A DNA stretch of 64,000 bases from positions 1 to 64,000 of IMG/VR virus record IMGVR_UViG_3300018036_000004, one strand, 5' to 3'. This document shows positions 10,190-61,846 of the stretch, piece after piece. Each line of letters begins with the position of its first letter. Positions within the stretch are counted from its first letter, which is position 1. A program made the translations under genes and the position numbers. The stretch comes from a virus. Below the pieces are notes generated by a model that did no database searches, was not told the DNA's origin, and saw only the letters and a list, made by a program, of their open reading frames with translations.

Positions 10190-10969
10190 ATGAGTACATA
10201 CAAAACTTTACTTACAGAAGTAAGAACCCTTAAAAAAGTAGCTAATGATGACTTTAAAGAAAACCTTTTAGAGTTACTTAACAGTGAGGATCTAAGTCAG
10301 GTTAACCAAGCCTTATCTTTGAACGACGCGTTAAACATACTTAGCGACCAAGAAGTAGCAGACATCTTAATTCCAAAAACACATGATAATGGTTTTTACC
10401 GACTCGTCTACTGGGAAAATATGGATAGTTTTGGTTGGGAACTTTTGAAAAAGTATCCTAATCACCCAGAGTGGAAACAGTTGGATACACTAGTAAGTAT
10501 TGGGGAAGGAACTGGCAGTGTTCCTAAGGAAATAGAGAACTTAACTAACTTGACAGAGTTGTCTTTACGTAAGGCCAACGTACCTAAAGAGATAGGAAAC
10601 TTAACTAACTTGAAAGATCTAACTCTTTCAAGTTGTAACCTTACTAGCCTACCTAGTTGGATAGGAAACTTAAAGAACTTGACATACTTGGGTTTATATA
10701 GTAACAACCTATCTACTCTACCCAAAGAGATTGGCAACCTTACTAACTTGGACGCTTTAGGGTTAGACTTTAATAAACTAACAAGTCTACCTAAGGAAAT
10801 AGGAAACCTAACTAACTTGGAAAAGTTGTGGTTAAACGGAAACAAACTAACAAGTTTACCGGAAGAATTAGGGAAATTGCGTCGTAGTTTAAAAGTAGTA
10901 GAACTATATAACAATTATATTAAGAAAGACGAACTTCCAAATTGGCTTAAGCGAATTGTAAGTATGTAA
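10190..10969 (+). CDS. LRR protein 1 with targeting-like leader and QA module
   Basis: Three parts. Residues 1-22 ([20 protein letters not shown]) form a helical leader shared with two later LRR genes. Residues 23-60 carry the QA module ([20 protein letters not shown]). From about residue 105 five to six leucine-rich repeats of roughly 23 residues follow, with consensus [14 protein letters not shown]. The leader resembles, in spacing and type of residue, the capsid-targeting peptides of T4 internal proteins (M-x-T-Y-x-x-[FL]-[IL]-x-E), which would make this a packaged, processed protein; that is inference. LRRs usually bind proteins. AGAGGAAA precedes the ATG. Confidence 0.8.
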   Translation: MSTYKTLLTEVRTLKKVANDDFKENLLELLNSEDLSQVNQALSLNDALNILSDQEVADILIPKTHDNGFYRLVYWENMDSFGWELLKKYPNHPEWKQLDTLVSIGEGTGSVPKEIENLTNLTELSLRKANVPKEIGNLTNLKDLTLSSCNLTSLPSWIGNLKNLTYLGLYSNNLSTLPKEIGNLTNLDALGLDFNKLTSLPKEIGNLTNLEKLWLNGNKLTSLPEELGKLRRSLKVVELYNNYIKKDELPNWLKRIVSM

Positions 10970-11009
10970 TACTTACACCACATACTATAAAACACTTAAG
11001 GAGTTAAAA

Positions 11010-11726
11010 ATGAGAAGAAAACAAGCAAGTGATCCATTAAACCAAACTTATGTAAGCTTGGTAGAATTCGATCTACTTACAGGGGCTGAAGGTGCAAGGA
11101 TACATCGCAGGGAACAGGACGGATCTCCTTATGTTAGTGAAAAGGACTTGAACTTTTACGCTAAACAAGATTTAGAATTCTGGGAAGAGTACATTATGTA
11201 CACACCGGAGTGGGAAAAGGCTATGGAAGCTTTAGAGGAACTCTACGATACTTCTGACGTAGAGATTTATCCTAAGGCTGAGACTAGATCGATTGTTGTG
11301 TACTCAATAGAAAATGAAGAATACGATATGCGTGTTAGTGACTCCAAGGCTTGGGGTTATATGGAAAAACAAAAGAACAACATGAAAAGTATATATAACT
11401 CTGTTAAGGGTTCACAAGTCCTTAGACAGTTACAAGATACCCACAACAAGGCAAGTAAGGCACAAGTAGATAAAGTAAGACAGTCGTTGTTTACCTTTGA
11501 CTTAAGAAATATCAATCAGATGATAGACATTGCGTATGCGTTGGAAGACAAAAAGATTAACGATGTTATTAGGGAGTTTCTGGACTTCACACCATTAGAT
11601 ATAAATAGCGGTACTGTTTGGATGACTGTACAAATATTTACAAGGTGGAAAATTGCTACTCGTGGGGGTCTATCTTCTTGGGAAGACTCCGAGGAAGAAT
11701 CCTTTGACGATTCTGACTGGTATTAA
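11010..11726 (+). CDS. hypothetical protein with KQAS leader and QA-like segment
   Basis: 238 residues, no family recognised. It begins MRRKQASD, a short form of the K-x-A-S leader. Residues 155-190 (QSLFTFDLRNINQMIDIAYALED) resemble the QA module. The C terminus is strongly acidic (SWEDSEEESFDDSDWY). It sits between an LRR gene and the aldolase gene, with AAGGAG eight bases upstream; a hairpin terminator follows. Confidence 0.65.
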   Translation: MRRKQASDPLNQTYVSLVEFDLLTGAEGARIHRREQDGSPYVSEKDLNFYAKQDLEFWEEYIMYTPEWEKAMEALEELYDTSDVEIYPKAETRSIVVYSIENEEYDMRVSDSKAWGYMEKQKNNMKSIYNSVKGSQVLRQLQDTHNKASKAQVDKVRQSLFTFDLRNINQMIDIAYALEDKKINDVIREFLDFTPLDINSGTVWMTVQIFTRWKIATRGGLSSWEDSEEESFDDSDWY

Positions 11727-11747
11727 TCTAATACTTACTCTATAAAG

Positions 11748-11779
11748 AACCCCTTACTGTTAAACACAGTCAAGGGGTT
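11748..11779 (+). promoter_or_regulatory. compact hairpin with buried ribosome site
   Basis: Inverted repeat AACCCCTTACTGT / ACAGT-c-AAGGGGTT (one bulge) followed by a T-run, ending six bases before the aldolase ATG. AAGGGG in the 3' arm is the only ribosome site available. Confidence 0.6.
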
Positions 11780-11784
11780 TTCTT

Positions 11785-12393
11785 ATGTTAACTGCAATGG
11801 GCGATGTAATGCGTGAAGCATACAAACGAGGATGGATTACTACTAGAGATGGAAACATATCGTTGGTACAATCTAACAGAGAAACATTCTACATCACACC
11901 TAGTGGTTGGCGTAAAACTATCTTACATCCTGAACATATCTTACGCATACCTATTGTGGATAACGAGTTAGAACTTAAAGAAGGTATGAACCCTAGTGGT
12001 GAACTAGAAATGCATTGGAACTTACAACAACCCAATAAGTTTCGAACAAGAGCCGTGGTACATCTACATCCTACTTATACTATAAGTGCTATGTTAAAAG
12101 GTTTCGATTTACAGTCAATGTCTAAACACTTTCCAGAGTTGTCTAGATATACAAGAGTAGGACCTACTGTACCAGTATTGCCTGTAATCTCTACAGAGTT
12201 AGCATGGGCAACTGCAGGGAACTTTTATATAGACAGTGATGGTAAAGTTAAGTATGACATTGTAGGGCAAGCAGGACATGGTGTTTGTGCTATTGGAGGG
12301 AACCCTTGGGATGCTTTTGAGCATATAGAGCGCTTAGAACATATCTGTCAGATAGTATTGGCTAGTGGTGTTGATCCAAAAGACTTACAATAA
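11785..12393 (+). CDS. class II aldolase/adducin family enzyme
   Basis: Matches the zinc-dependent class II aldolase family (fuculose- and ribulose-phosphate aldolases, methylthioribulose-phosphate dehydratase). RGWITTRDGNIS and YITPSGW form the phosphate site. SGELEMH holds the likely catalytic E73. HLHP (H93, H95) and GHGV (H165) supply the three metal histidines. Length (202 residues) is standard and no key residue is missing, so it is probably active on a sugar phosphate; the substrate cannot be told. It lies among LRR genes with no other sugar-metabolism gene nearby, so the role in infection is open. Confidence 0.87.
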   Translation: MLTAMGDVMREAYKRGWITTRDGNISLVQSNRETFYITPSGWRKTILHPEHILRIPIVDNELELKEGMNPSGELEMHWNLQQPNKFRTRAVVHLHPTYTISAMLKGFDLQSMSKHFPELSRYTRVGPTVPVLPVISTELAWATAGNFYIDSDGKVKYDIVGQAGHGVCAIGGNPWDAFEHIERLEHICQIVLASGVDPKDLQ

Positions 12394-12426
12394 AGGTTTA
12401 ATCTTGTGTAGTACAATATAAACCTT
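12393..12426 (+). promoter_or_regulatory. compact hairpin with TATA-like loop
   Basis: AAGGTTTA / TAAACCTT inverted repeat bracketing CTTGTGTAGTACAATA, in which TACAAT is a good -10 match. It begins at the aldolase stop codon and lies 28 bases before the next LRR gene, whose own site (AAGGAAA) is outside the hairpin. Confidence 0.55.
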
Positions 12427-12453
12427 AATAACATAATCTAAGGAAACCTAATT

Positions 12454-13101
12454 ATGACTACTTATAAAACATTATTACAAGAAGTAAGAACCCTTAAAAA
12501 AGTAGCAAGCGGTGACTTTAAAAAGAAACTTTTAAGTTTACTTAATAGTGATGATCCTAGTCAGGTTAACCAAGCCCTATCTTTAAATGATACCCTAGGT
12601 ATTCTTAGTGACCAAGAAATAGGTGACTGGTCTATACCTACAGTTATTAATAGAAACCGAAACGTGGAAGAACATTGGAAAACCTTAGACAGTTTAGGTT
12701 GGGTACTTTTAAAAGCCATACCTAATCATCCTATGTGGAGTAGCCTTACAGCTTTAGGGTGCTACGGTGGCAACATTACAAGTTTACCTAGTGAAATAGG
12801 AAACCTAACAAACTTAAAAACCTTGTTCTTAAATAATAACAATCTAACAAGTCTACCTAAAGAAATAGGAAACTTAAAGAACTTGGAAACGTTGTACGTA
12901 GAAGAAAACAATCTAACAAGTATCCCTAGTTCTATTGGTAACCTAAATAAGTTAAAGTTCTTTCGGTTAAGTGATAACAATCTAACAAGTCTACCCAGTT
13001 CTAGTGGTAACCTAACTAAGTTGAGAGCGTTAACCTTAGACAATAACAAACTAACAATTGATGATGTACCAGAAAACCTTAGAAAGGTTACAAAAATCTA
13101 A
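12454..13101 (+). CDS. LRR protein 2 with targeting-like leader and QA module
   Basis: Paralogue of the LRR gene at 10190: leader [22 protein letters not shown] module ([20 protein letters not shown]), a linker ending PNHPMW, then four LRRs ([14 protein letters not shown] type) and a short cap ending DVPENLRKV. At 215 residues it is shorter by about two repeats. It ends in the same way as the third LRR gene. AAGGAAA precedes the start. Confidence 0.8.
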
Positions 13102-13159
13102 AGTTTAACCCTACTAAACCAATAAAAGTTATCTTGTACATAAATAAAGGAAACTATTC

Positions 13160-13879
13160 ATGACTACTTATAAATCCTTACTTACAGAAGTTCGTACTCT
13201 TAAAAAGTTAGCCAGTGAAGATTTTAAAGAAAGTCTTTTAGAGTTAATTAACAGTGGAGATATACAAGACATTAACCATGCTTTATTTTTAAACGAGGAC
13301 TTAGAAATCCTTACAGATCAAGAAATTGGTGATTTACTCTTTCCACAAGTTATTAATAGTAAAAGCGGGAAGACTGTATTTGGGGCATGGCTCCAAGACG
13401 GATTAGGTTGGATGCTTTTAGAAACTTTACCTAATCACCCTATGTGGAAAAACTTAACTAAATTGAGTCTACTTGGTAGAGGACTAACAAGTTTACCAAG
13501 TTCAATAGAAAACTTAAAGAACTTGAAAAGTTTGTTCTTATATGATAACGAATTAACAAGTTTACCTAAAGAACTTGAAAACCTAAAGAACTTGTTATAC
13601 TTGAACTTAATGAATAACGACCTAAAAAGTTTACCTAGTGCAATAGGAAACTTAACTAACTTGAAAGAGTTGAACTTAAGGAATAACAAACTATCCAATT
13701 TACCAAGTTGGATAGGTAATTTAAAGAACTTGGAATACTTGAGCTTAGAGAATAACAACCTAACAAGTTTACCTAAAGAAATAGGAAACTTAACTAACTT
13801 GAAAGTCTTGAACTTAAACAATAACAGCCTAACAATAGAGGATGTTCCGGAGAACATTAGATCTATCCTTTTTGATTAG
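13160..13879 (+). CDS. LRR protein 3 with targeting-like leader and QA module
   Basis: Third paralogue: leader MTTYKSLLTEVRTLKKLASE, QA module (LINSGDIQDINHALFLNEDL), PNHPMW linker, six LRRs and a DVPENIRSI end like copy 2. Repeat number differs among the three copies (about 4 to 6), as expected from unequal recombination between the near-identical repeat-coding DNA. AAAGGAAA precedes the ATG. Confidence 0.8.
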   Translation: MTTYKSLLTEVRTLKKLASEDFKESLLELINSGDIQDINHALFLNEDLEILTDQEIGDLLFPQVINSKSGKTVFGAWLQDGLGWMLLETLPNHPMWKNLTKLSLLGRGLTSLPSSIENLKNLKSLFLYDNELTSLPKELENLKNLLYLNLMNNDLKSLPSAIGNLTNLKELNLRNNKLSNLPSWIGNLKNLEYLSLENNNLTSLPKEIGNLTNLKVLNLNNNSLTIEDVPENIRSILFD

Positions 13880-14270: not shown

Positions 14271-14840
14271 ATGTTGAAACATTTACAAAGAATGGCTATC
14301 CAAAAAGTAATGAAAACAGCCTCTTTTAATTTTGACCAGGACTTTTGGGGTGACCTGATTGTACAAGGTTGTGTTAAAGTTAAAACTAACTTTAAAGTTA
14401 GTAAGACAGAAGAATTTAGTATTTACACAACAGTTCGTAGTAGAGATTACTACACACCAGATGATTGGGACGAACATACTTTTAAAGCACCTTCCACCTA
14501 CGAAATTAATCTTAGTGGGGCTATGGACTTGGATTGTGTAGAAAAAGAACTCGGAGAACTAGTAACGGGTGACGAAGTATGGGAAGCCTTTGTAGAGTCT
14601 TTAGAGGACAATGGTAGTTATGGTGGAGGCATGTTTTACGAGGCCTTAGAAGATCTAACTATAGAACTAGAAGACGATTGGAGAGGTGAAGCCTCAGATT
14701 ACACTTTCGAAGACTGGAATGTGAGTTCTTGGAATGTTAAAAATCCTAAGTACAAAGTAGTAGGAGACCATGTAACTTTTAGTTTAACACTTCAAGTAAA
14801 CATTGAAGTAGAAGGTTTACAGTTTGACAGTGAATACTAA
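14271..14840 (+). CDS. hypothetical protein with KTAS leader
   Basis: 189 residues. ATG at 14271 is chosen because TGGAG lies six bases upstream; earlier in-frame starts lack a site. The leader MLKHLQRMAIQKVMKTAS matches that of the gene at 15313 (MKHLYKTAIRNVMSKT), although the rest of the two proteins differs. The body is acidic and beta-rich. No family recognised. A shared leader on unrelated bodies suggests a sorting or cleavage signal. Confidence 0.65.
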   Translation: MLKHLQRMAIQKVMKTASFNFDQDFWGDLIVQGCVKVKTNFKVSKTEEFSIYTTVRSRDYYTPDDWDEHTFKAPSTYEINLSGAMDLDCVEKELGELVTGDEVWEAFVESLEDNGSYGGGMFYEALEDLTIELEDDWRGEASDYTFEDWNVSSWNVKNPKYKVVGDHVTFSLTLQVNIEVEGLQFDSEY

Positions 14841-15312: not shown

Positions 15313-15627
15313 ATGAAACACTTGTATAAAACAGCTATTCGTAATGTTATGAGTAAAACTCTTACCTGGAAAGACATAGAATCTAAATATCCAAAATTAT
15401 ATAAAGAAGCACTACCTATGTTTATGAATCCTTTTGGGGATGGACCCTTTGATGGATTAACTTTTATAGAGTTTGTTAACTCTATAGACCCACATTACTT
15501 ACAAAGTAAAACATCTTTGTCTAAACAAGATACTATAGAACTAGCCTTCCTTTTCTTGGATAGACCTCAGTTTAAATCTAAATTGCCTGACTTGTACCAA
15601 CAAGTGAAAAGAACATACAAAATCTAA
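15313..15627 (+). CDS. hypothetical protein with shared leader
   Basis: 104 residues; leader MKHLYKTAIRNVMSKT is shared with the gene at 14271. The body (GDGPFDGLTFIEFVNSIDPH) is not recognised. It follows the tRNA by 26 bases, with TAGGAAGA before the ATG. Confidence 0.6.
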   Translation: MKHLYKTAIRNVMSKTLTWKDIESKYPKLYKEALPMFMNPFGDGPFDGLTFIEFVNSIDPHYLQSKTSLSKQDTIELAFLFLDRPQFKSKLPDLYQQVKRTYKI

Positions 15628-16226: not shown

Positions 16227-16799
16227 ATGTCGTATGAAGAAGCCTCTAAACTTTGGGAACTGATATTTACTAAAGACTTAGATAACATTAACCAAGCCGT
16301 TATGTTAAATGAAGTACTAAACATTATACCTTTACAAGATATACAAGACGCTCTATATCCACAATTTCTTTATTCTCAAACTCAACAACAGTTTATTAAC
16401 TTTGAAGACCTAGAAGACTTACTACTTAAAGTCTTTGACTATGTAGAACTAGACCCAGAAGACTATGACAGTATCTCTACTTTGTACAAAGACAAGTCCT
16501 TTCCTCTTACTTTGATTACAAACCCACCCTCTTTGTTAACACCTGAACCCGAACATATACCTCATCCAGATACTGTATCTGGACAAAGAGAATGGAAACA
16601 CTTAAAAGATAAGGCTTATAAATACACAGACAAACTAAATACTAACATACCACAGTTAAAAGGTATGACAGCAGAAGACTTTGTTACGGAAACACATAAA
16701 CAATATGTAAAACTAAATACTAAACTAGAAGCCTTACTGAATAAACTGGCTGAAGATCCTAACCTGTGGCAAACTACTACGGGTATCGTTTATAGATAG
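16227..16799 (+). CDS. QA-module protein
   Basis: 190 residues. ATG at 16227 is preferred over the GTGs at 16215 and 16218 because AGGAG (16211-16215) is then correctly spaced. The N terminus is the QA module (LWELIFTKDLDNINQAVMLNEVL, split here by description: LWELIF, DLDNINQAV, LNEVL), followed by DIQDALYPQFL exactly as in the LRR proteins. The rest is helical with a proline-rich stretch near 100-115 and no LRRs. It is an LRR-family N terminus on another body. Confidence 0.65.
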   Translation: MSYEEASKLWELIFTKDLDNINQAVMLNEVLNIIPLQDIQDALYPQFLYSQTQQQFINFEDLEDLLLKVFDYVELDPEDYDSISTLYKDKSFPLTLITNPPSLLTPEPEHIPHPDTVSGQREWKHLKDKAYKYTDKLNTNIPQLKGMTAEDFVTETHKQYVKLNTKLEALLNKLAEDPNLWQTTTGIVYR

Positions 16800-51158: not shown

Positions 51159-52382
51159 CTATTTAATAATCTCGAAATCTTTCGTTCTATTAGAGTAGAA
51201 CGGGTCTCTTAACTCTACTAACTTTAAACTCTCTACTAAAGTTAAAGTTGTAGGGTTTCCTGTTTCTATTAACTCATCATCTGTTAAAGCATTGGTAGCT
51301 ACTTCAGATACAAGTTGGTGGGGTACAACACGAGATAAGTATCTCGGCATTGGTTTAAACATAAACCAATCTGTCATAACTGTTACAGACACGCTTGCGG
51401 TGTAAAAATAATCATCCCCATTATCATCATATGTTTCTTCACCTTCTCCACCTAAAGAAACATCTGTAATAACAATACCTTCCTTGCCTAATCGATCCCT
51501 TAATGTTGTGTACAAGTACATTACAGTGCGATCCGCTATCTCACCTTGTGAGTAAAGGTCTCTAGCCATTATGTCAAAGTCTAAACTAAGTTCCCAGTTA
51601 CCGCCGTACTGTAAAAAGACATCTTCCCTTTGTCTAGTTACAAGTACACACATTACATCTCCAGCAAAAGCTCTTCTTCCAAAGGCTAGTATAACACCTG
51701 GTATGGCCGTATTGTTAGTACCATTTTCTTCTAATACATAAGGACCTGTAGATTGTCCTGCGTATCTATAGTCAACACTTAAAGACAAGTTGTTAGGTAA
51801 GGCTTTTAATAAAGTAATAGTACCTGTCTCTGGGTCTGCTGTATAGTTAACACCCTCGTAGTAAGGAAAATTACCGGGTACTTCGAATACTCGTAAGGAA
51901 CCTGCATGAAAACCACCAGCACCTACTTCGAAAGTATAGTTGTTAATCCTTAAAGGTATTTCATTAACTATCTCTAATAAAGGGTCTACATAGAACACAA
52001 GTTTATCTCTAGGTTCCCCTTTAACTAAAACTTGCTCTTCGACTACCTCTATATAATAGATACCTGGTGGTGTTGGAAACTTACTATTGTTTTGTTGAAT
52101 GGCTACACTGTCTTCTTTAATCCATTCAATACTAGTACCTTGTTTACCATAGTAACCAGTAAGGGTACAGTAAGAAGACACTGTACCCATAAAATGGTCT
52201 GCGGCTAACGATGTAGCGGACGCTGAGTTACTTTTAAGAATAATAGCCTGTTGAGGTCTTTCTTCGAAAGAGAACTTACCTTGAATAACAAGATTATCTT
52301 TATACTGGGGTTCCGTAGACCAATAGTTACGTAACTCCATTATAAATCTTCTTTTAATACTCTCCGTTAAGTTTGCAAACAT
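51159..52382 (-). CDS. virion structural (tail/baseplate-region) protein
   Basis: 407 residues. The N terminus (MFANLTESIKRRFIMELRNYW, first 20 being characteristic) and QAIILKSNSASATSLAADHFMGTV resemble a family of tail-region structural proteins of large myoviruses, by memory. The centre includes VNYTADPETGTITLLKAL, like the beta units of the sheath. The end is helical. The ribosome site is weak; the MFAN start is kept because its context is duplicated upstream of the next gene. Twelve bases precede the lysin gene. Confidence 0.65.
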   Translation of the reverse strand: MFANLTESIKRRFIMELRNYWSTEPQYKDNLVIQGKFSFEERPQQAIILKSNSASATSLAADHFMGTVSSYCTLTGYYGKQGTSIEWIKEDSVAIQQNNSKFPTPPGIYYIEVVEEQVLVKGEPRDKLVFYVDPLLEIVNEIPLRINNYTFEVGAGGFHAGSLRVFEVPGNFPYYEGVNYTADPETGTITLLKALPNNLSLSVDYRYAGQSTGPYVLEENGTNNTAIPGVILAFGRRAFAGDVMCVLVTRQREDVFLQYGGNWELSLDFDIMARDLYSQGEIADRTVMYLYTTLRDRLGKEGIVITDVSLGGEGEETYDDNGDDYFYTASVSVTVMTDWFMFKPMPRYLSRVVPHQLVSEVATNALTDDELIETGNPTTLTLVESLKLVELRDPFYSNRTKDFEIIK

Positions 52383-52419
52383 ACAGGGTCATCTTTAAAG
52401 GGTGTTTAAGTAAGGTTTT

Positions 52420-52992
52420 TTACAGTCGATAGTTTGTTGGAACTTTTACCTTTAGGATTCCTTTGGTTTCATTATCTATATCCCAACCAAGACCTCCCCT
52501 TCGTTCAACATCAAATGCTCTCGACCAGTCTTCCATATCCTCTAGAAAAGTATTATAAAAGTTATCACGGTCACGACCAAGATTGTACAATGTCCCAGAA
52601 GATGTAGTGATAGTGTATTCGAACTGCACATAAGGCATTCTATTCATTTCTATAATTTCGAAATCACTTACAACCTGTAATTCACGACGGTTTCGGCCGC
52701 GGCTATAAGACCTAGCTAATGTTGTAACCTTGTCCCGAACCAAGTCTAACCACTGTTGGGGTGTTCCAGCATCACTTAACCTTTCAGTTTCCGCTTGTAA
52801 AAATGTCTTATACCCTTCTAAGTGTCCTAGTAAGTTATCCTTTTCTCTTCCAGTCTGACCACGCATATAGTGCTTCAAAGTTTCTAAGGCTGAAAGTGTT
52901 TCCCTTATATTTATTAATTGTTCCTGTTTAGAAGCCAGTTTCTTTAATTGTTGAACTTCTTTAAGAAGTTGTTTTGCTGTTAATTTTCTCAT
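52420..52992 (-). CDS. leader-family protein (LKKLAS), copy 1
   Basis: 190 residues. Leader MRKLTAKQLLKEVQQLKKLAS is nearly identical to that of the next gene, whereas the bodies differ: here a helical part (LSALETLKHYMRGQTGREKD) and a beta part. The leader also has the K-K-L-A-S end of the LRR proteins. CTAGGAG upstream. In the structural region, so a virion-packaged protein is plausible (inference). Confidence 0.65.
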   Translation of the reverse strand: MRKLTAKQLLKEVQQLKKLASKQEQLINIRETLSALETLKHYMRGQTGREKDNLLGHLEGYKTFLQAETERLSDAGTPQQWLDLVRDKVTTLARSYSRGRNRRELQVVSDFEIIEMNRMPYVQFEYTITTSSGTLYNLGRDRDNFYNTFLEDMEDWSRAFDVERRGGLGWDIDNETKGILKVKVPTNYRL

Positions 52993-53006
52993 GTGTTAAC
53001 TCCTAG

Positions 53007-53036
53007 TTAACCTATTAAATTAATGTTTGCAAACAT
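53007..53036 (-). pseudogene. remnant start of a structural gene (MFAN fragment)
   Basis: ATG TTT GCA AAC then five more codons and a stop, preceded by the same GATGACC-tgt as the gene at 52382. The 23-base context occurs twice (52371-52393 and 53025-53047). It looks like the left-over first codons of the structural gene after insertion or duplication of the leader-family gene between them. Confidence 0.5.
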
Positions 53037-53047
53037 ACATGGTCATC

Positions 53048-53710
53048 CTAATATGCGTCTTTATTGTCTAGGTAATTCATTAGAATTTTTGGTGCTTCTT
53101 TATCAAACACAGATTTAAAATGTGTAAAACACTTATCCATCGACTCATCTATATTTGGAGTAAGAATATTTTTCTCAACATCGTAAGGGTCTTGAAACAA
53201 CCCGTAAAAATCACATTCGCTCTTATTGGTCCCATCTCTTGCGATCACATAATTGAACAAAATGAAATCACGACCCACGACTAACTTCATCTCTACATGT
53301 CCCCAAGCACCTTTACCCCCTATATTAGATTTTATTTTCCAATCTAAACCTGTTTTCTTAGCCCAATTTTCCATATAAGACAGGATTTTACCATAGGTGT
53401 CTTCAATGGCTTGTTTAGCGTCTTGGTCACATTCAGAACCTTGTTTCCACCAATCTATACAAACCTTTTGTTTTTGTACTCGAATAGGCTGTGTTCTTGT
53501 ATAGGTGACATAGGCTATGTCACCTTGAACATTAATGTCTTCGATATAATGTTGTGAGACATGCTGAGCAGCCCAAGACTCTACTTGACCCAACAGGTCT
53601 TCTTCGTCTTCGTAAACGAAAACATAATCTTCTAACCAGTCTTTAGAGGCCAGTTTCTTTAATTGTTGAACTTCAAGAAGAAGTTGTTTTGCTGTCAGTT
53701 TTTTATTCAT
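53048..53710 (-). CDS. leader-family protein (LKKLAS), copy 2
   Basis: 220 residues. Leader MNKKLTAKQLLLEVQQLKKLAS as in copy 1; the body starts with an acidic segment (KDWLEDYVFVYEDEEDLL) and continues as an alpha/beta domain with four cysteines. No family recognised. AAAAGGTG upstream. The pair shows exchange of bodies behind a constant leader. Confidence 0.65.
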   Translation of the reverse strand: MNKKLTAKQLLLEVQQLKKLASKDWLEDYVFVYEDEEDLLGQVESWAAQHVSQHYIEDINVQGDIAYVTYTRTQPIRVQKQKVCIDWWKQGSECDQDAKQAIEDTYGKILSYMENWAKKTGLDWKIKSNIGGKGAWGHVEMKLVVGRDFILFNYVIARDGTNKSECDFYGLFQDPYDVEKNILTPNIDESMDKCFTHFKSVFDKEAPKILMNYLDNKDAY

Positions 53711-53783
53711 AACACACCTTTTTGGAATTGTTATTTTAACATAAATGTTTTTTGTATAAGGATTCTATTGAATGTATCTCTAG

Positions 53784-55229
53784 TTAATCTATTAAATAAA
53801 TGTAAGCACTGGAGTCTGTCTCGATAATACCATCGTCAAACATAATCTCTAAAACCTGACTTACTTGTTTAGCGTCTACTTTAAACTTACGCATTACTTG
53901 TTTTGTTAAGTCTTCAATGAAAATAGCATCTTTACGACTTAGTAAGTCTTGAATGTACTTTTCCATCTTAGACTGTAAGTTTGCAAACTTCCACTTATTA
54001 CGATCCATCATGTCCTTAGGTGAAAAGGTATTACGTTTAGGAAGAAACTTGTCAAAGTCATATCGTCCGTCTCCTTCTCGGGCTTGTAACCAAGCCAAAA
54101 CACCTCTAGCAGAACCATGTGTACCAAACCTTTTAACAATGGAGAATCTATTATCTACCATGTACATTGTGTAACGATCAATGTACTTGTTATTTTCAGA
54201 ATCTGCGTTTCTTAAAGCAAGGAATGTGTATTCAGGAGAGATTCTTTTAGTGAAACTAGATTGATCTCTGGACCATCCCGCTACACCTACGGCAGAGTGT
54301 GTAGGTATACCTTTTCTAGGAACACTGTCACCTTGTTTGTAGATAGGATACCCATAACCATTAAAGTCCGCTTTAAAGTTTCTACGGGCTTGTCTAGACT
54401 GGTTCATTTTAACAGCCCCTTGTAAATCCGGTTGTTCGGATTCTACAACAAACCTGTTTAAAGTAGACACATCACTACCACCGGGTAACTCTAAAATCTC
54501 GTCTGGAGTTAAAGGACTAGCTTCGTACTCTTTCTTTTCCTGTGATAGTGGGCTTTGGTGGCCTCTATCTTCTTTTAAAGTATTTTTAAAAGTAGTAGGG
54601 TCATTAGAAACAGCGTTGGACTCTGCAAACTGTGAAACCTCTACTTTACGAGGATCTTTGTAAAAGATTTCGGCGGCGTCTATATCTTCCGAAACTCTTC
54701 TGTTTAATTTGGCTGTTCTAGGTTCTACAATCTGTTGTAACAAGTATAAGTTACTTTCGTGGTTGGAAGCCAATGTGATTAATAAATCCTCTAGACCTAT
54801 TGTCATTAAACCAAAACCTTTTAAGTCCTCAATACTTTGTTCGATTAACTGTAAAAAGAACCTTTCAATGTGTAAGCCTCTTTTAATAGGATCTTGTACC
54901 TGAGAGAAACCTTGTAGGTATGAAAACATCAAAGGTGCTTGGTAGGCTAGTTTAAGTTGGCTAGTTCCCATAACCCCACCAATCTTTTCCGCCAAACTAT
55001 CAATCTCTTCGTTTGTAGAGTTGTACAGTCTTTCGAAAAGTAAGTGGTCTTGGAAAAAGTGTGATCCGTATACAGTCCAATGGGAAGTCTGGTAAGAAAT
55101 AGACATTGCTCTTAAACAGGCTAAAACAGGTCCTAGGATCTGTCCACCTACGGCCACCATTTCTAAGTCGTTAGTCACATACCCATTTTTAGTAAAGTTT
55201 TCGTATTGTTGTTCCATAGTATCTTCCAT
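53784..55229 (-). CDS. Dps/ferritin-like domain fused to a large C-terminal region
   Basis: 481 residues. Residues 30-180 read as a Dps-type four-helix domain. H50-W, G55, H62, E66, D77 and E81 reproduce the spacing of Dps ferroxidase ligands (two histidines 12 apart, then 15 and 4 to the acidic pair). The middle (195-340) is hydrophilic; residues 340-420 form a beta-rich domain; the last 70 form a winged-helix-like end (DLTKQVMRKFKVDAKQVSQVL). Such a fusion is unusual; iron binding or a purely structural role are both possible. The start may instead be ATG 55217 (GGAAG upstream). Confidence 0.7.
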   Translation of the reverse strand: MEDTMEQQYENFTKNGYVTNDLEMVAVGGQILGPVLACLRAMSISYQTSHWTVYGSHFFQDHLLFERLYNSTNEEIDSLAEKIGGVMGTSQLKLAYQAPLMFSYLQGFSQVQDPIKRGLHIERFFLQLIEQSIEDLKGFGLMTIGLEDLLITLASNHESNLYLLQQIVEPRTAKLNRRVSEDIDAAEIFYKDPRKVEVSQFAESNAVSNDPTTFKNTLKEDRGHQSPLSQEKKEYEASPLTPDEILELPGGSDVSTLNRFVVESEQPDLQGAVKMNQSRQARRNFKADFNGYGYPIYKQGDSVPRKGIPTHSAVGVAGWSRDQSSFTKRISPEYTFLALRNADSENNKYIDRYTMYMVDNRFSIVKRFGTHGSARGVLAWLQAREGDGRYDFDKFLPKRNTFSPKDMMDRNKWKFANLQSKMEKYIQDLLSRKDAIFIEDLTKQVMRKFKVDAKQVSQVLEIMFDDGIIETDSSAYIYLID

Positions 55230-56591: not shown

Positions 56592-57239
56592 TTACCACCC
56601 ATAAAAGGACAATACATCTTCTAGGACTTCCTTATCACCCCAAAAGTTCTTCTTTAATTGTTTAATAGCCTCTGGGTCTTGGAATAGTTTGTCACCATAG
56701 TCTTTAAAGGACTTATCAATAGTCTTAAAGTGTTTTTCAATTAAAGATGTAAGTTGTTTAGTGTTGTTGAATATAGTTAAAGGGATGAAAAAGTTTATAG
56801 GTAAGTATACTTTTTTGCTAACAAAAGAGTCTTGTAATGATAACGGACCATCATCCATAATTTCAGCTTCGTATTGTTTATTTCGTTTTAGGTATTCTCT
56901 TGGGATTACACTATACACATTAAAGTACTTATTGTGTACAACATTACAATAGAGGACAAGTTCATCGTCCTCTATTGACACAGAAACCTCAAATACACAA
57001 GCTAGTTGTAAGTGTCTGGTGTTTACTACCGTAAACACATTACCTTCGTCTTGTTCCATAACACTAAAATTACCAGACCAAGGTAAGTTTTCAAAGTCGT
57101 TTATACCATTAACGATGTCTATTAGTGGTTGTAGTTGGGGTAATAAGTCTAAGGAATCTGCTAACAATTCCGCTTGTTGTATTAAAGAAGGATCGTTTCT
57201 TAATACTAATTCTTGTAGTTTTTCAATTTCTGAGGACAT
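56592..57239 (-). CDS. QA-module protein with beta domain
   Basis: 215 residues. The N terminus is the QA module (LQELVLRNDPSLIQQAELL, LADSLDLLPQ), then a beta domain (VFEVSVSIEDDELVLYCNVV) and a helical end. Same design as the genes at 60106, 60675 and 61274. No terminator between it and the converging gene. Function unknown. Confidence 0.62.
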   Translation of the reverse strand: MSSEIEKLQELVLRNDPSLIQQAELLADSLDLLPQLQPLIDIVNGINDFENLPWSGNFSVMEQDEGNVFTVVNTRHLQLACVFEVSVSIEDDELVLYCNVVHNKYFNVYSVIPREYLKRNKQYEAEIMDDGPLSLQDSFVSKKVYLPINFFIPLTIFNNTKQLTSLIEKHFKTIDKSFKDYGDKLFQDPEAIKQLKKNFWGDKEVLEDVLSFYGW

Positions 57240-60105: not shown

Positions 60106-60645
60106 TTATCTTGTCCCAGGTATTAGTTTAAGGAACTTAGGGTCGTCCATTAGTTTCTTTAAAATAGGCTCTAACCTTGTTAAGTTTTTCTCAAAAGTAG
60201 TATCAATAAAGTCCAACATATCGTCGTAAGACATCTCTAATACATCTGTGGATACTACGGGTACTTTTCTGTTTAGGATTTGAGTTTGTACAAACTCAAA
60301 GGCCTTATTATTACCTCTCCAAGATCCAGCAGAAGAAGGATTGATTGTATACATAACACCATTACCTGTAAGTTTTACACCTGTATGTAACTCTCCATCC
60401 CTAATGATAGCGGTTGGCTCTAAAGACACATATAAACCAAAGTTGGTAGACATCCATTCCATATAGGTAGATTCTAACTCTGTATTTTTAATTTCTATTA
60501 ACTGTGTAAGTCTGTAATTGTATACCGCGGAATTAAAAACATCCCTTTCCTGTTTTGTTAAAGGTAAAGAATCCGCTAACACAATTGCTTGTGTTACTAA
60601 GGAATCGTCTTCTTTTTCTACTAAATCCAATAACTTATGTAACAT
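60106..60645 (-). CDS. QA-module protein with beta domain
   Basis: 179 residues. Module MLHKLLDLVEKEDDSLVTQA then IVLADSLPLTKQ; beta domain (LYVSLEPTAIIRDGELHTGV); helical end with DDMLDFIDTTFEKNLTRLEP, which corresponds to DVVEHYWNDI and DFVKYAERYF in the next two genes. Member of a tandem set of four. Function unknown. Confidence 0.65.
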   Translation of the reverse strand: MLHKLLDLVEKEDDSLVTQAIVLADSLPLTKQERDVFNSAVYNYRLTQLIEIKNTELESTYMEWMSTNFGLYVSLEPTAIIRDGELHTGVKLTGNGVMYTINPSSAGSWRGNNKAFEFVQTQILNRKVPVVSTDVLEMSYDDMLDFIDTTFEKNLTRLEPILKKLMDDPKFLKLIPGTR

Positions 60646-60674: not shown

Positions 60675-61271
60675 CTATTTACACAAAGGTGTAGCCTTAT
60701 TTAATCGTGTCAGTTTAGGGTCCATTGCTAAGAACTTGGTTTTAAGGTGAACCTTAGCAGATATGTCATTCCAATAGTGTTCCACTACATCTTCCACTTT
60801 ATCCCAAGTATCGTCTACTGTGGTATCTATAGTTAGTTCCTTAAAGGCACCTTTAAGTTCTTTCTCTGCATACTTAAATGCCTTGTTACCGATAGAGCTT
60901 TGATAGTACCAGTTACCGTTCTTAGGGCAAAAGTAGATCATGTCGTCAAACCTTATACCCACACGAATAATGTTTGGGGCAATACTTACAGGCTCGATTT
61001 GGAAACTGAATGAGTAAGAGTCACTTTTACTCCCATCAGCAAAACCTAAACCTGGATTTTGTATACTGCGACCAACACTAACATAGTCATTAGAACCCCA
61101 ACCATTAAAGAATATGTTGGGTAGCACTAAGGCAATCTCTGTTTCCAACGCATAAATCTCTTGGGCATTAAGACCTACTAAGTACATAAGTTCTTTTACT
61201 TGTTCAATGTAAGCGAGGTTACCTGTTTCAACAAGTCTCATTAACTTTATTGCGTCTTCTGATAATCTCAT
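60675..61271 (-). CDS. QA-module protein with beta domain
   Basis: 198 residues. Starts MRLSEDAIKLMRLVETGN, close to MRNLSEDAQKLKDLITNGN of the gene just upstream; the QA core is eroded (YIEQVKELMYLVGL). Central beta domain (YSFSFQIEPVSIAPNIIRVG) and the NKAFKYAEKEL helix present in its paralogues. Follows the upstream gene by two bases. Confidence 0.65.
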   Translation of the reverse strand: MRLSEDAIKLMRLVETGNLAYIEQVKELMYLVGLNAQEIYALETEIALVLPNIFFNGWGSNDYVSVGRSIQNPGLGFADGSKSDSYSFSFQIEPVSIAPNIIRVGIRFDDMIYFCPKNGNWYYQSSIGNKAFKYAEKELKGAFKELTIDTTVDDTWDKVEDVVEHYWNDISAKVHLKTKFLAMDPKLTRLNKATPLCK

Positions 61272-61273
61272 TC

Positions 61274-61846
61274 TTAAAATCCTGCGTAGGATCTAAAAGC
61301 CGATTGATTAACCCATCTTTGGGCTTCCCCTGCTAAACGGTTAATACGATTACGAAAGTATCTTTCTGCATACTTAACAAAGTCTTCGTATTCTGTATCC
61401 CACTTAACTTCAAACAAACCAGGTCCTAACTTTTTGTTAAGAACCTTAATAGCAAAATCATCGGCTCTTTTATTGACATTAGTTTCATTGTTAGAACGAA
61501 AAGGTCCTACAGTAGATCCTCCCTCAAATACAGGCTGAACCTTAATTAAAGGCATGTTTGGATTAGGGTAGAAACCACCAACATAAACAGGAAACATATA
61601 TTCATACTCATCGTCGTCTGTTCGGATTACAAGAACATCTTGTAAGTCATACCGACCATAGTCGTCCCAAATCATTTCAGTGAAAGCTATCTTTTTCCAA
61701 TCTACGATAAGTTCCTTAATGTACTGTTCTTCATCTCTAGGCAACTGTATGTCTTCTAATAAAAGAACAGCCTGATTTACAAACGTTTCATTACCATTAG
61801 TAATTAAGTCTTTAAGTTTTTGAGCGTCTTCTGATAAGTTACGCAT
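61274..61846 (-). CDS. QA-module protein with beta domain
   Basis: 190 residues. MRNLSEDAQKLKDLITNGN, then FVNQAVLLLEDIQLPRDEE is a clear QA module; beta domain in the middle; KRADDFAIKVLNKKLG and DFVKYAERYFRNRINRL helices as in the set. Tandem duplication is the simplest origin. TATGGAG upstream within a duplicated intergenic cassette. Confidence 0.65.
   Translation of the reverse strand: MRNLSEDAQKLKDLITNGNETFVNQAVLLLEDIQLPRDEEQYIKELIVDWKKIAFTEMIWDDYGRYDLQDVLVIRTDDDEYEYMFPVYVGGFYPNPNMPLIKVQPVFEGGSTVGPFRSNNETNVNKRADDFAIKVLNKKLGPGLFEVKWDTEYEDFVKYAERYFRNRINRLAGEAQRWVNQSAFRSYAGF

What the first reader, a model, noticed from the sequence alone, without database searches (positions are those of the whole stretch)
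10190..13879. Three LRR proteins with N-terminal leaders like capsid-targeting peptides
All three begin M-(S/T)-T-Y-K-(T/S)-L-L-x-E-V-R-T-L-K-K-(V/L)-A-(S/N). This resembles in layout the targeting propeptides of T4 internal proteins (M-K-T-Y-x-x-F-I-x-E-A), which send proteins into the prohead and are then cut by the head protease. If so, these LRR proteins are packaged and injected with the DNA, as effectors acting on host proteins. LRR number differs between copies.
Basis: inference. Interest (0 to 1): 0.7.

Follow-up and report, generated by a model that had tools for sequence, protein, structure and literature searches.

The report
Head-packaging tags on phage binding proteins
Three phage proteins built like adaptable binding proteins carry a short, probably removable tag, shared with at least six other proteins of the same phage, that most likely loads them into the virus head for injection into the bacterium, with a predicted cutting site unlike that of the textbook phage T4.

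Summary
The leader is not specific to LRR proteins. In the same phage (this record plus a contig overlapping its last 60 kb at 99.8-100% identity) nine proteins carry LLxEVxxLKKxA: four LRR proteins and five others. That phage encodes portal, scaffold, major capsid protein and a head maturation protease, outside the window. Comparison with related phages points to a protease site [K/R]-x-A|(S/G). It is repeated in the scaffold, kept in portal, protease and one further structural-module protein, and ends the leader (KK[VLQ]A|[SNGA]). Relatives use other leader modules that also end in K-x-A; where such a module is internal or C-terminal, the motif moves to its other side, as expected for a cut between tag and cargo. 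So 'head-targeting leader removed by the head protease' is well supported by comparison, though unproved. The T4-like L-x-E cut at residue 10 is probably not the site. The LRRs vary almost only on the concave binding face. Injection and effector action remain inference. New variant of a known kind.

The parts
10190..10243 (+). Leader of LRR protein 1 (residues 1-18, [19 protein letters not shown]; cut site predicted)
10244..10969 (+). Predicted mature LRR protein 1: N-terminal helical domain and LRR domain
12454..12507 (+). Leader of LRR protein 2 ([19 protein letters not shown])
12508..13101 (+). Predicted mature LRR protein 2
13160..13213 (+). Leader of LRR protein 3 (MTTYKSLLTEVRTLKKLA|S)
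13214..13879 (+). Predicted mature LRR protein 3; AlphaFold2 model mean pLDDT 84.6, nearest solved structures Leptospira LRR proteins
52933..52992 (-). Same leader on a non-LRR protein (MRKLTAKQLLKEVQQLKKLA|S; ORF 52420-52992)
52420..52932 (-). Cargo of the 52420 protein, no Pfam family
53648..53710 (-). Same leader on a non-LRR protein (MNKKLTAKQLLLEVQQLKKLA|S; ORF 53048-53710)
53048..53647 (-). Cargo of the 53048 protein, no Pfam family
14271..14840 (+). Neighbouring protein with a different N-terminus ending in the same motif (MLKHLQRMAIQKVMKTA|S); tentative member
   Evidence: no orthologue available to test conservation
11010..11726 (+). Protein between LRR genes 1 and 2 that starts MRRKQA|S; tentative, could be chance

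Best explanation
The leader is a prohead-targeting propeptide. A short amphipathic helix (LLxEVxxLKK) docks the protein onto the scaffold-filled prohead core; when the head maturation protease is activated it cuts after K-x-A (residue 18 in the LRR proteins), freeing the cargo inside the head, from which it can be ejected with the DNA. The LRR proteins would then be delivered binding proteins whose variable concave face recognises a host (or competing-phage) protein. Shown by sequence: shared leader on different cargos, purifying selection on it, the presence of portal, scaffold, MCP and protease in the same phage, and the recurrence of [KR]xA at conserved places in head proteins and at tag-cargo junctions in relatives. 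Inferred: docking partner, cutting, packaging, ejection, target binding.
For: (1) Nine proteins of one phage share the leader: four LRR proteins plus G000 52420, 53048, 92352, 93860 and L030:17817; G001 carrying two of them overlaps the last 60 kb of this record at 99.8-100% identity, so it is the same phage. (2) That contig encodes portal (phrog_16240, 3e-26), MCP (phrog_2522, 7e-53) and a protease matching the PHROG 'head maturation protease' in all six orthologues tested. (3) Across 38 orthologue clusters, positionally conserved [KR]xA[SGN] occurs three times in N-terminal regions (portal, 3271 protein, scaffold) and not once in 8,992 body columns; with [SGNA], seven of nine conserved sites are in head-assembly proteins, and control motifs [KR]x(G/V/L/S) give 1, 0, 1, 0 N-terminal sites against 5. 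The protease N-terminus has it in 7 of 7, shifted by one residue in some. (4) The scaffold is studded with KKKA(S/A/G) in four of seven orthologues beyond shuffles (p 0.0005-0.0025). (5) Three further leader types in related phages mostly end in K-x-A: hairpin type 15 of 17, LR745208 type 12 of 14, LRxILAxEGL type 8 of 11. (6) Where the hairpin module is internal or C-terminal the motif precedes it, 7 of 7, about five independent cases against a background of 14% per window. (7) LRR repeats vary at strand positions 2, 3, 5, 7, 8 (2.3-3.1 bits) and hardly elsewhere.
Against: Genome-wide, homologue-collapsed proteins without a leader show no N-terminal excess of [KR]xA[SG] (22 against 96, odds ratio 1.03), so the motif alone predicts little. 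The motif was recognised after looking at the leaders, so the tests are not fully blind. AlphaFold2 draws residues 4-30 as one continuous helix across the predicted cut (pLDDT 62-85). The protease model failed (mean pLDDT 44), so its fold was not confirmed. The four leader types cannot be shown to be homologous. No virion proteomics exists.
Confidence: 0.66

Rival explanations
1. The leader is a docking helix that attaches proteins to the virion (head or tail) or to another phage assembly and is not cut off; K-x-A at its end is just part of the helix.
For: AlphaFold2 continues the helix through the site; no genome-wide excess of the motif; several leader carriers lie near tail genes (52420 and 53048 next to 51159-55229).
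Against: The motif's side swaps with module position in relatives and it is conserved in portal, protease and the 3271 protein, which lack the leader.
Confidence: 0.18
2. A true T4-type capsid targeting sequence cut after L-x-E at residue 10 by a gp21-like protease, as the first reader suggested in detail.
For: In all four LRR leaders positions 4, 7, 8 and 10 (Tyr, Leu, Leu, Glu) fit the T4 positions named as important for targeting (4, 7) and cutting (8, 10) in PMC9026906.
Against: The other five leaders lack the Tyr; no Pfam peptidase family S77 hit to the protease; the shared conserved N-terminal site of portal, protease and 3271 protein is KxA, not LxE; none of the three other leader types ends in LxE.
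Confidence: 0.05
3. The leader is an intracellular address unrelated to the virion, for example to the host membrane or a phage replication compartment, and the LRR proteins act during infection only.
For: The leader is a short amphipathic helix; LRR proteins need not be packaged to bind host targets; their genes lie apart from the head module, among small genes of unknown function and a tRNA gene.
Against: Does not explain why the end of the leader matches conserved sites in scaffold, portal and protease.
Confidence: 0.08
4. The shared N-termini are only a relic of gene duplication and shuffling, with no function.
For: 52420 and 53048 leaders are nearly identical in DNA (10 of 12 codons) and a 68-base segment is repeated exactly at the 92352 and 93860 gene starts, so start segments are copied.
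Against: Between other pairs the leader has diverged at synonymous sites but kept its residues.
Confidence: 0.03

Closest known systems
Phage T4 internal proteins IPI-III and their capsid targeting sequence (CTS), cut by gp21
   Same: Short N-terminal leader (10-19 residues in T4, 18-21 here) shared by different proteins, ahead of a likely head-protease site; a head protease in the phage; scaffold with many matching sites (PMC9026906).
   Different: Predicted cut K-x-A| instead of L/I-x-E|; leader core LLxEVxxLKK, without the T4 Tyr in five of nine carriers; cargo includes LRR proteins.
Salmonella giant phage SPN3US gp245 system (A-x-E|) and phiKZ relatives
   Same: N-terminal propeptides as short as 20 and 24 residues, portal cleaved near its N-terminus, serine preferred after the cut (PMC10052503).
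   Different: P1 residue predicted Ala, not Glu; portal propeptide here about 40 residues, not 254; leaders here are shared sequence families.
Phage P1 DarB capsid localisation signal
   Same: The N-terminal 30 residues suffice to send a foreign protein into the head; the cargo is an injected anti-defence protein (PMC9024508).
   Different: In P1 no shared leader sequence was found among Dar proteins; here the leader is shared by at least nine proteins.
Herpesvirus maturational protease
   Same: Head proteases of tailed phages are related to it (PMC9026906, PMC10052503). Cutting between Ala and Ser after a short motif resembles the herpesvirus consensus (own knowledge, not tested).
   Different: Basic residue two positions before the Ala; no fold comparison was possible.
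Leptospira-type bacterial LRR proteins (e.g. LIC12234, PDB 4tzh)
   Same: LRR domain, Foldseek E 2.6e-13, 46% identity over the repeats.
   Different: Leptospira proteins lack the phage leader and N-terminal domain in the aligned part; no close relative was found in phage records, and pattern scans of viral and bacterial contig collections, which only reach close relatives, found none beyond this phage's own fourth copy.

Membership tests
T4-type capsid targeting sequence | Leader shared by several otherwise different proteins | tested here: met
   Nine carriers, at least four body types; some bodies (53048, L030:17817, 92352) are distantly related to each other.
T4-type capsid targeting sequence | Cut after L/I-x-E by the head protease | tested here: not met
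   LLxE is in the leader, but no L/I-x-E is at the conserved N-terminal sites of portal, protease and 3271 protein; those share KxA. Actual cutting could not be tested.
T4-type capsid targeting sequence | Sufficient to direct a foreign protein into the head | not testable with these tools
   Needs a fusion experiment.
Head-protease propeptide (general) | Head maturation protease encoded by the same phage | tested here: met
   L029:9243-10631 on the contig that overlaps this record at 99.8-100%; phrog_18299 E 1.7e-12, six of six orthologues.
Head-protease propeptide (general) | Leader ends in the same motif as other substrates of the protease | tested here: met
   [KR]xA|: portal, protease, scaffold, 3271 protein, leaders. 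The motif itself is predicted, not measured.
Head-protease propeptide (general) | Leader absent from the mature virion protein | not testable with these tools
   Needs virion mass spectrometry.
Herpesvirus/HK97-type head protease fold | Protease fold and catalytic residues | tested here: inconclusive
   AlphaFold2 model mean pLDDT 44, unusable; no PDB sequence match; invariant His-55/128 and Ser-179/245 in the alignment are only candidates.
LRR proteins | LRR repeats and solenoid fold | tested here: met
   Pfam well above cut-offs; model pLDDT 84.6 and 676 PDB matches at E<=0.001.
Diversity-generating retroelement target | Reverse transcriptase in the genome | tested here: not met
   No RVT_1 match in this record; the record is a fragment.

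The most novel reading that the evidence does not exclude
An uncharacterised huge-phage lineage runs a general 'tag, dock, cut and inject' system: several interchangeable scaffold-docking modules, at either end or in the middle of cargo proteins, each separated from the cargo by a K-x-A| site of the head protease, and in this phage it delivers a small, diversifying set of LRR binders whose concave faces are matched to host proteins, much as injected effectors are.
Probability: 0.3. Interest if true: 0.82.

Novelty: new variant of a known kind. Interest (0 to 1): 0.62.

Why it matters
If right, the leader profiles and the K-x-A rule turn protein sequence into a list of head-packaged and probably injected proteins for a group of huge phages known mostly from metagenomes, where almost none of the cargo has a recognisable family. 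It would also be a head-protease specificity not seen in T4, phiKZ or SPN3US, and a case of LRR binding proteins delivered by a phage particle. The tags could serve to load foreign proteins into large phage heads, as the T4 sequence does.

Tried and rejected
T4-type L-x-E cutting was considered and rejected as the common site. An unbiased N-terminal motif count over non-leader proteins gave nothing: [KR]xA[SG] odds ratio 1.03, and no K/R-x-A pattern among the top tripeptide patterns; an earlier, less strict count with a motif tuned on the examples gave odds ratio 3.4 for this record (p 0.002) but only 2.0 (p 0.11) without leader carriers, and is not relied on. Homology between the leader of this phage and the hairpin leader of relatives was tested by hhalign and not supported (probability 0.8%). 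The idea that the ~30-aa segment after the LRR leader is the same hairpin was also not supported (0.2%). A structure model of the protease failed. No LRR relatives were found in annotated phages by tblastn; pattern-seeded scans of viral contigs and bacterial genomes, which reach only close relatives, gave only the fourth copy in G001. A diversity-generating retroelement was looked for and not found in this record. Promoter and terminator scans around the genes gave no more than chance. Leader sequence of this type was not found in annotated phages. Cargo proteins of relatives have no confident Pfam family, so cargo function gave no support either way.
Full report
OBSERVATION. They are paralogues, 52-62% identical to the third, with different repeat numbers. 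Pfam and an AlphaFold2 model confirm LRR solenoids, nearest to Leptospira LRR proteins among solved structures. Within the repeats, the framework positions are nearly fixed (0-1.5 bits) whereas strand positions 2, 3, 5, 7 and 8, which line the concave binding face, vary at 2.3-3.1 bits. This is what a set of binders with different targets would look like, although a variable concave face is usual for LRR proteins.

THE LEADER IS NOT ABOUT LRRs. The window is bases 1-64000 of a 102,476-base virus record. A simple pattern scan of the whole record in six frames gave exactly seven N-terminal matches and two matches in non-coding frames: the three LRR proteins, 52420 and 53048 in the window, and two proteins at record positions 92352 and 93860. 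A second contig, G001, overlaps the last 60 kb of this record at 99.8-100% identity, so it is a continuation of the same phage, and adds a fourth LRR protein and one further carrier (L031:1144, L030:17817). Five carriers are not LRR proteins, and none of the four in this record has a Pfam family; three of the five (53048, L030:17817, 92352) have distantly related bodies, the others do not. Leader codons show mainly synonymous differences, so selection has kept the peptide. Two cases of recent copying are also visible (52420/53048; a 68-base exact repeat at 92352/93860).

THE HEAD GENES. The record contains the large terminase but ends inside the portal gene. On G001 follow the portal, a topoisomerase IB, a protease, an acidic scaffold-like protein and the major capsid protein. 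The protease matches the PHROG 'head maturation protease' in six of six orthologues. A structure model of it failed, so its fold is not confirmed independently.

A CANDIDATE CUTTING SITE. Orthologues from eight other IMG/VR records (two of them near-duplicates) and the 485-kb phage LR745208 were aligned. Three head-module proteins have a variable N-terminus with one fixed point: [KR]-x-A-(S/N/F) in the portal, IR(K)TAS in the protease, and (K/R)-x-A-G immediately before the conserved core in the 3271 protein. The scaffold has repeated KKKA(S/A/G) in acidic surroundings, more than shuffling explains in four of seven orthologues. A count over 38 orthologue clusters put this on an unbiased footing: conserved [KR]xA[SGN] occurs at three N-terminal positions, all in head proteins, and nowhere in 8,992 body columns; with Ala allowed after the site, seven of nine conserved positions are in head-assembly proteins. 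The leaders of this phage end in KKVAN, KKVAS, KKLAS, KKQAG or KKLAA, the same motif. The major capsid protein also has a conserved KLAAS at residue 26, but that stretch is conserved throughout and may be structural.

INDEPENDENT TAGS IN RELATIVES. Related phages lack this leader but have others on many unrelated proteins: a 38-residue hairpin (LTAxDRxxLIRLASTLPKGSxERRAILAGL), a second type in LR745208 with 12 carriers (LRSKLIRLAHENPxLRPHLLPLLK), and a third in one relative with about ten carriers (LRxILAxEGL). They cannot be shown to be homologous with each other (for the first pair), yet most end in K/R-x-A: 15 of 17, 12 of 14 and 8 of 11 (members of one type share ancestry, so these are not independent counts). 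The most telling cases are proteins with the hairpin in the middle or at the C-terminus: there the motif stands before the module, 7 of 7, about five of them independent, against 14% expected per window. The motif therefore follows the boundary between tag and cargo, as expected of a processing site.

MECHANISM. By analogy with T4, where 10-19-residue propeptides target internal proteins to the prohead core and are then removed (PMC9026906), and with P1, where 30 residues of DarB suffice for head localisation (PMC9024508), the leader is best read as a scaffold-docking propeptide removed at K-x-A|. Giant phage SPN3US has cleaved head proteins with 20- and 24-residue propeptides and favours serine after its cut (PMC10052503). 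Steps shown by sequence: shared leader, selection on it, presence of protease and scaffold, motif conservation and its position at tag boundaries. Steps inferred: docking, cutting, packaging, ejection, binding of host proteins.

Right about the kind of thing. The T4 fit at positions 4, 7, 8 and 10 of the LRR leaders is real, but Tyr-4 is absent from the other five leaders and L-x-E is not the common site of the head proteins, so residue 10 is probably not where the cut is.

LIMITS. The motif was noticed before it was tested. Outside conserved positions it is common by chance: non-leader proteins show no N-terminal excess. The AlphaFold2 model runs one helix across the predicted cut. All virus records are fragments, no host is known, and there are no virion data.

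Noticed in passing
window 16227-16799, 56592-57239, 60106-60645, 60675-61271, 61274-61846; G000 90293-91894: A ~30-aa segment (LLxLLNSxDxxxVNQALxLNExL) that follows the leader in the LRR proteins stands at the very N-terminus of at least six non-LRR proteins of this phage. Scaffolds of four relatives give only weak matches (E 2 to 23). Its role is unexplained.
   Followed up: partly
L037:1640-4435 (protease), L036:9070-10308, L036:10305-11762, L046:9511-12840 (portal): Large insertions in head genes of relatives (about 430 aa in one protease) that look like inteins; portal, protease and two neighbouring genes are affected.
   Followed up: no
window about 21501, 32638, 34740, 36228, 38763; L031:2471-2532: A ~62-base element, 82-87% identical to the copy in L031, repeated at several places between genes.
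   Followed up: no
L029:6283-7278: Topoisomerase IB (PF01028, E 9.5e-28) encoded inside the head gene module, between portal and protease genes.
   Followed up: no
window 14271-14840, 15313-15627; L029:7285-9237: Another possible N-terminal family (KHLxRxAIxxVM(S)K); the first member continues to KTAS.
   Followed up: partly
window 11785-12393: A gene that looks like a class II aldolase sits between LRR genes 1 and 2 (impression from the sequence, not searched).
   Followed up: no
L033:16262-18898, L057:717-3050: Long proteins with the hairpin tag at the N-terminus, in the middle and at the C-terminus, like a polyprotein with K-x-A sites between parts.
   Followed up: partly
L025:30404-31828, C-terminus: The protease of LR745208 ends in EARTLIRLASLLS, resembling the LIRLA core of the relatives' tags (weak, E 0.4); possibly the protease docks by the same signal.
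   Followed up: partly
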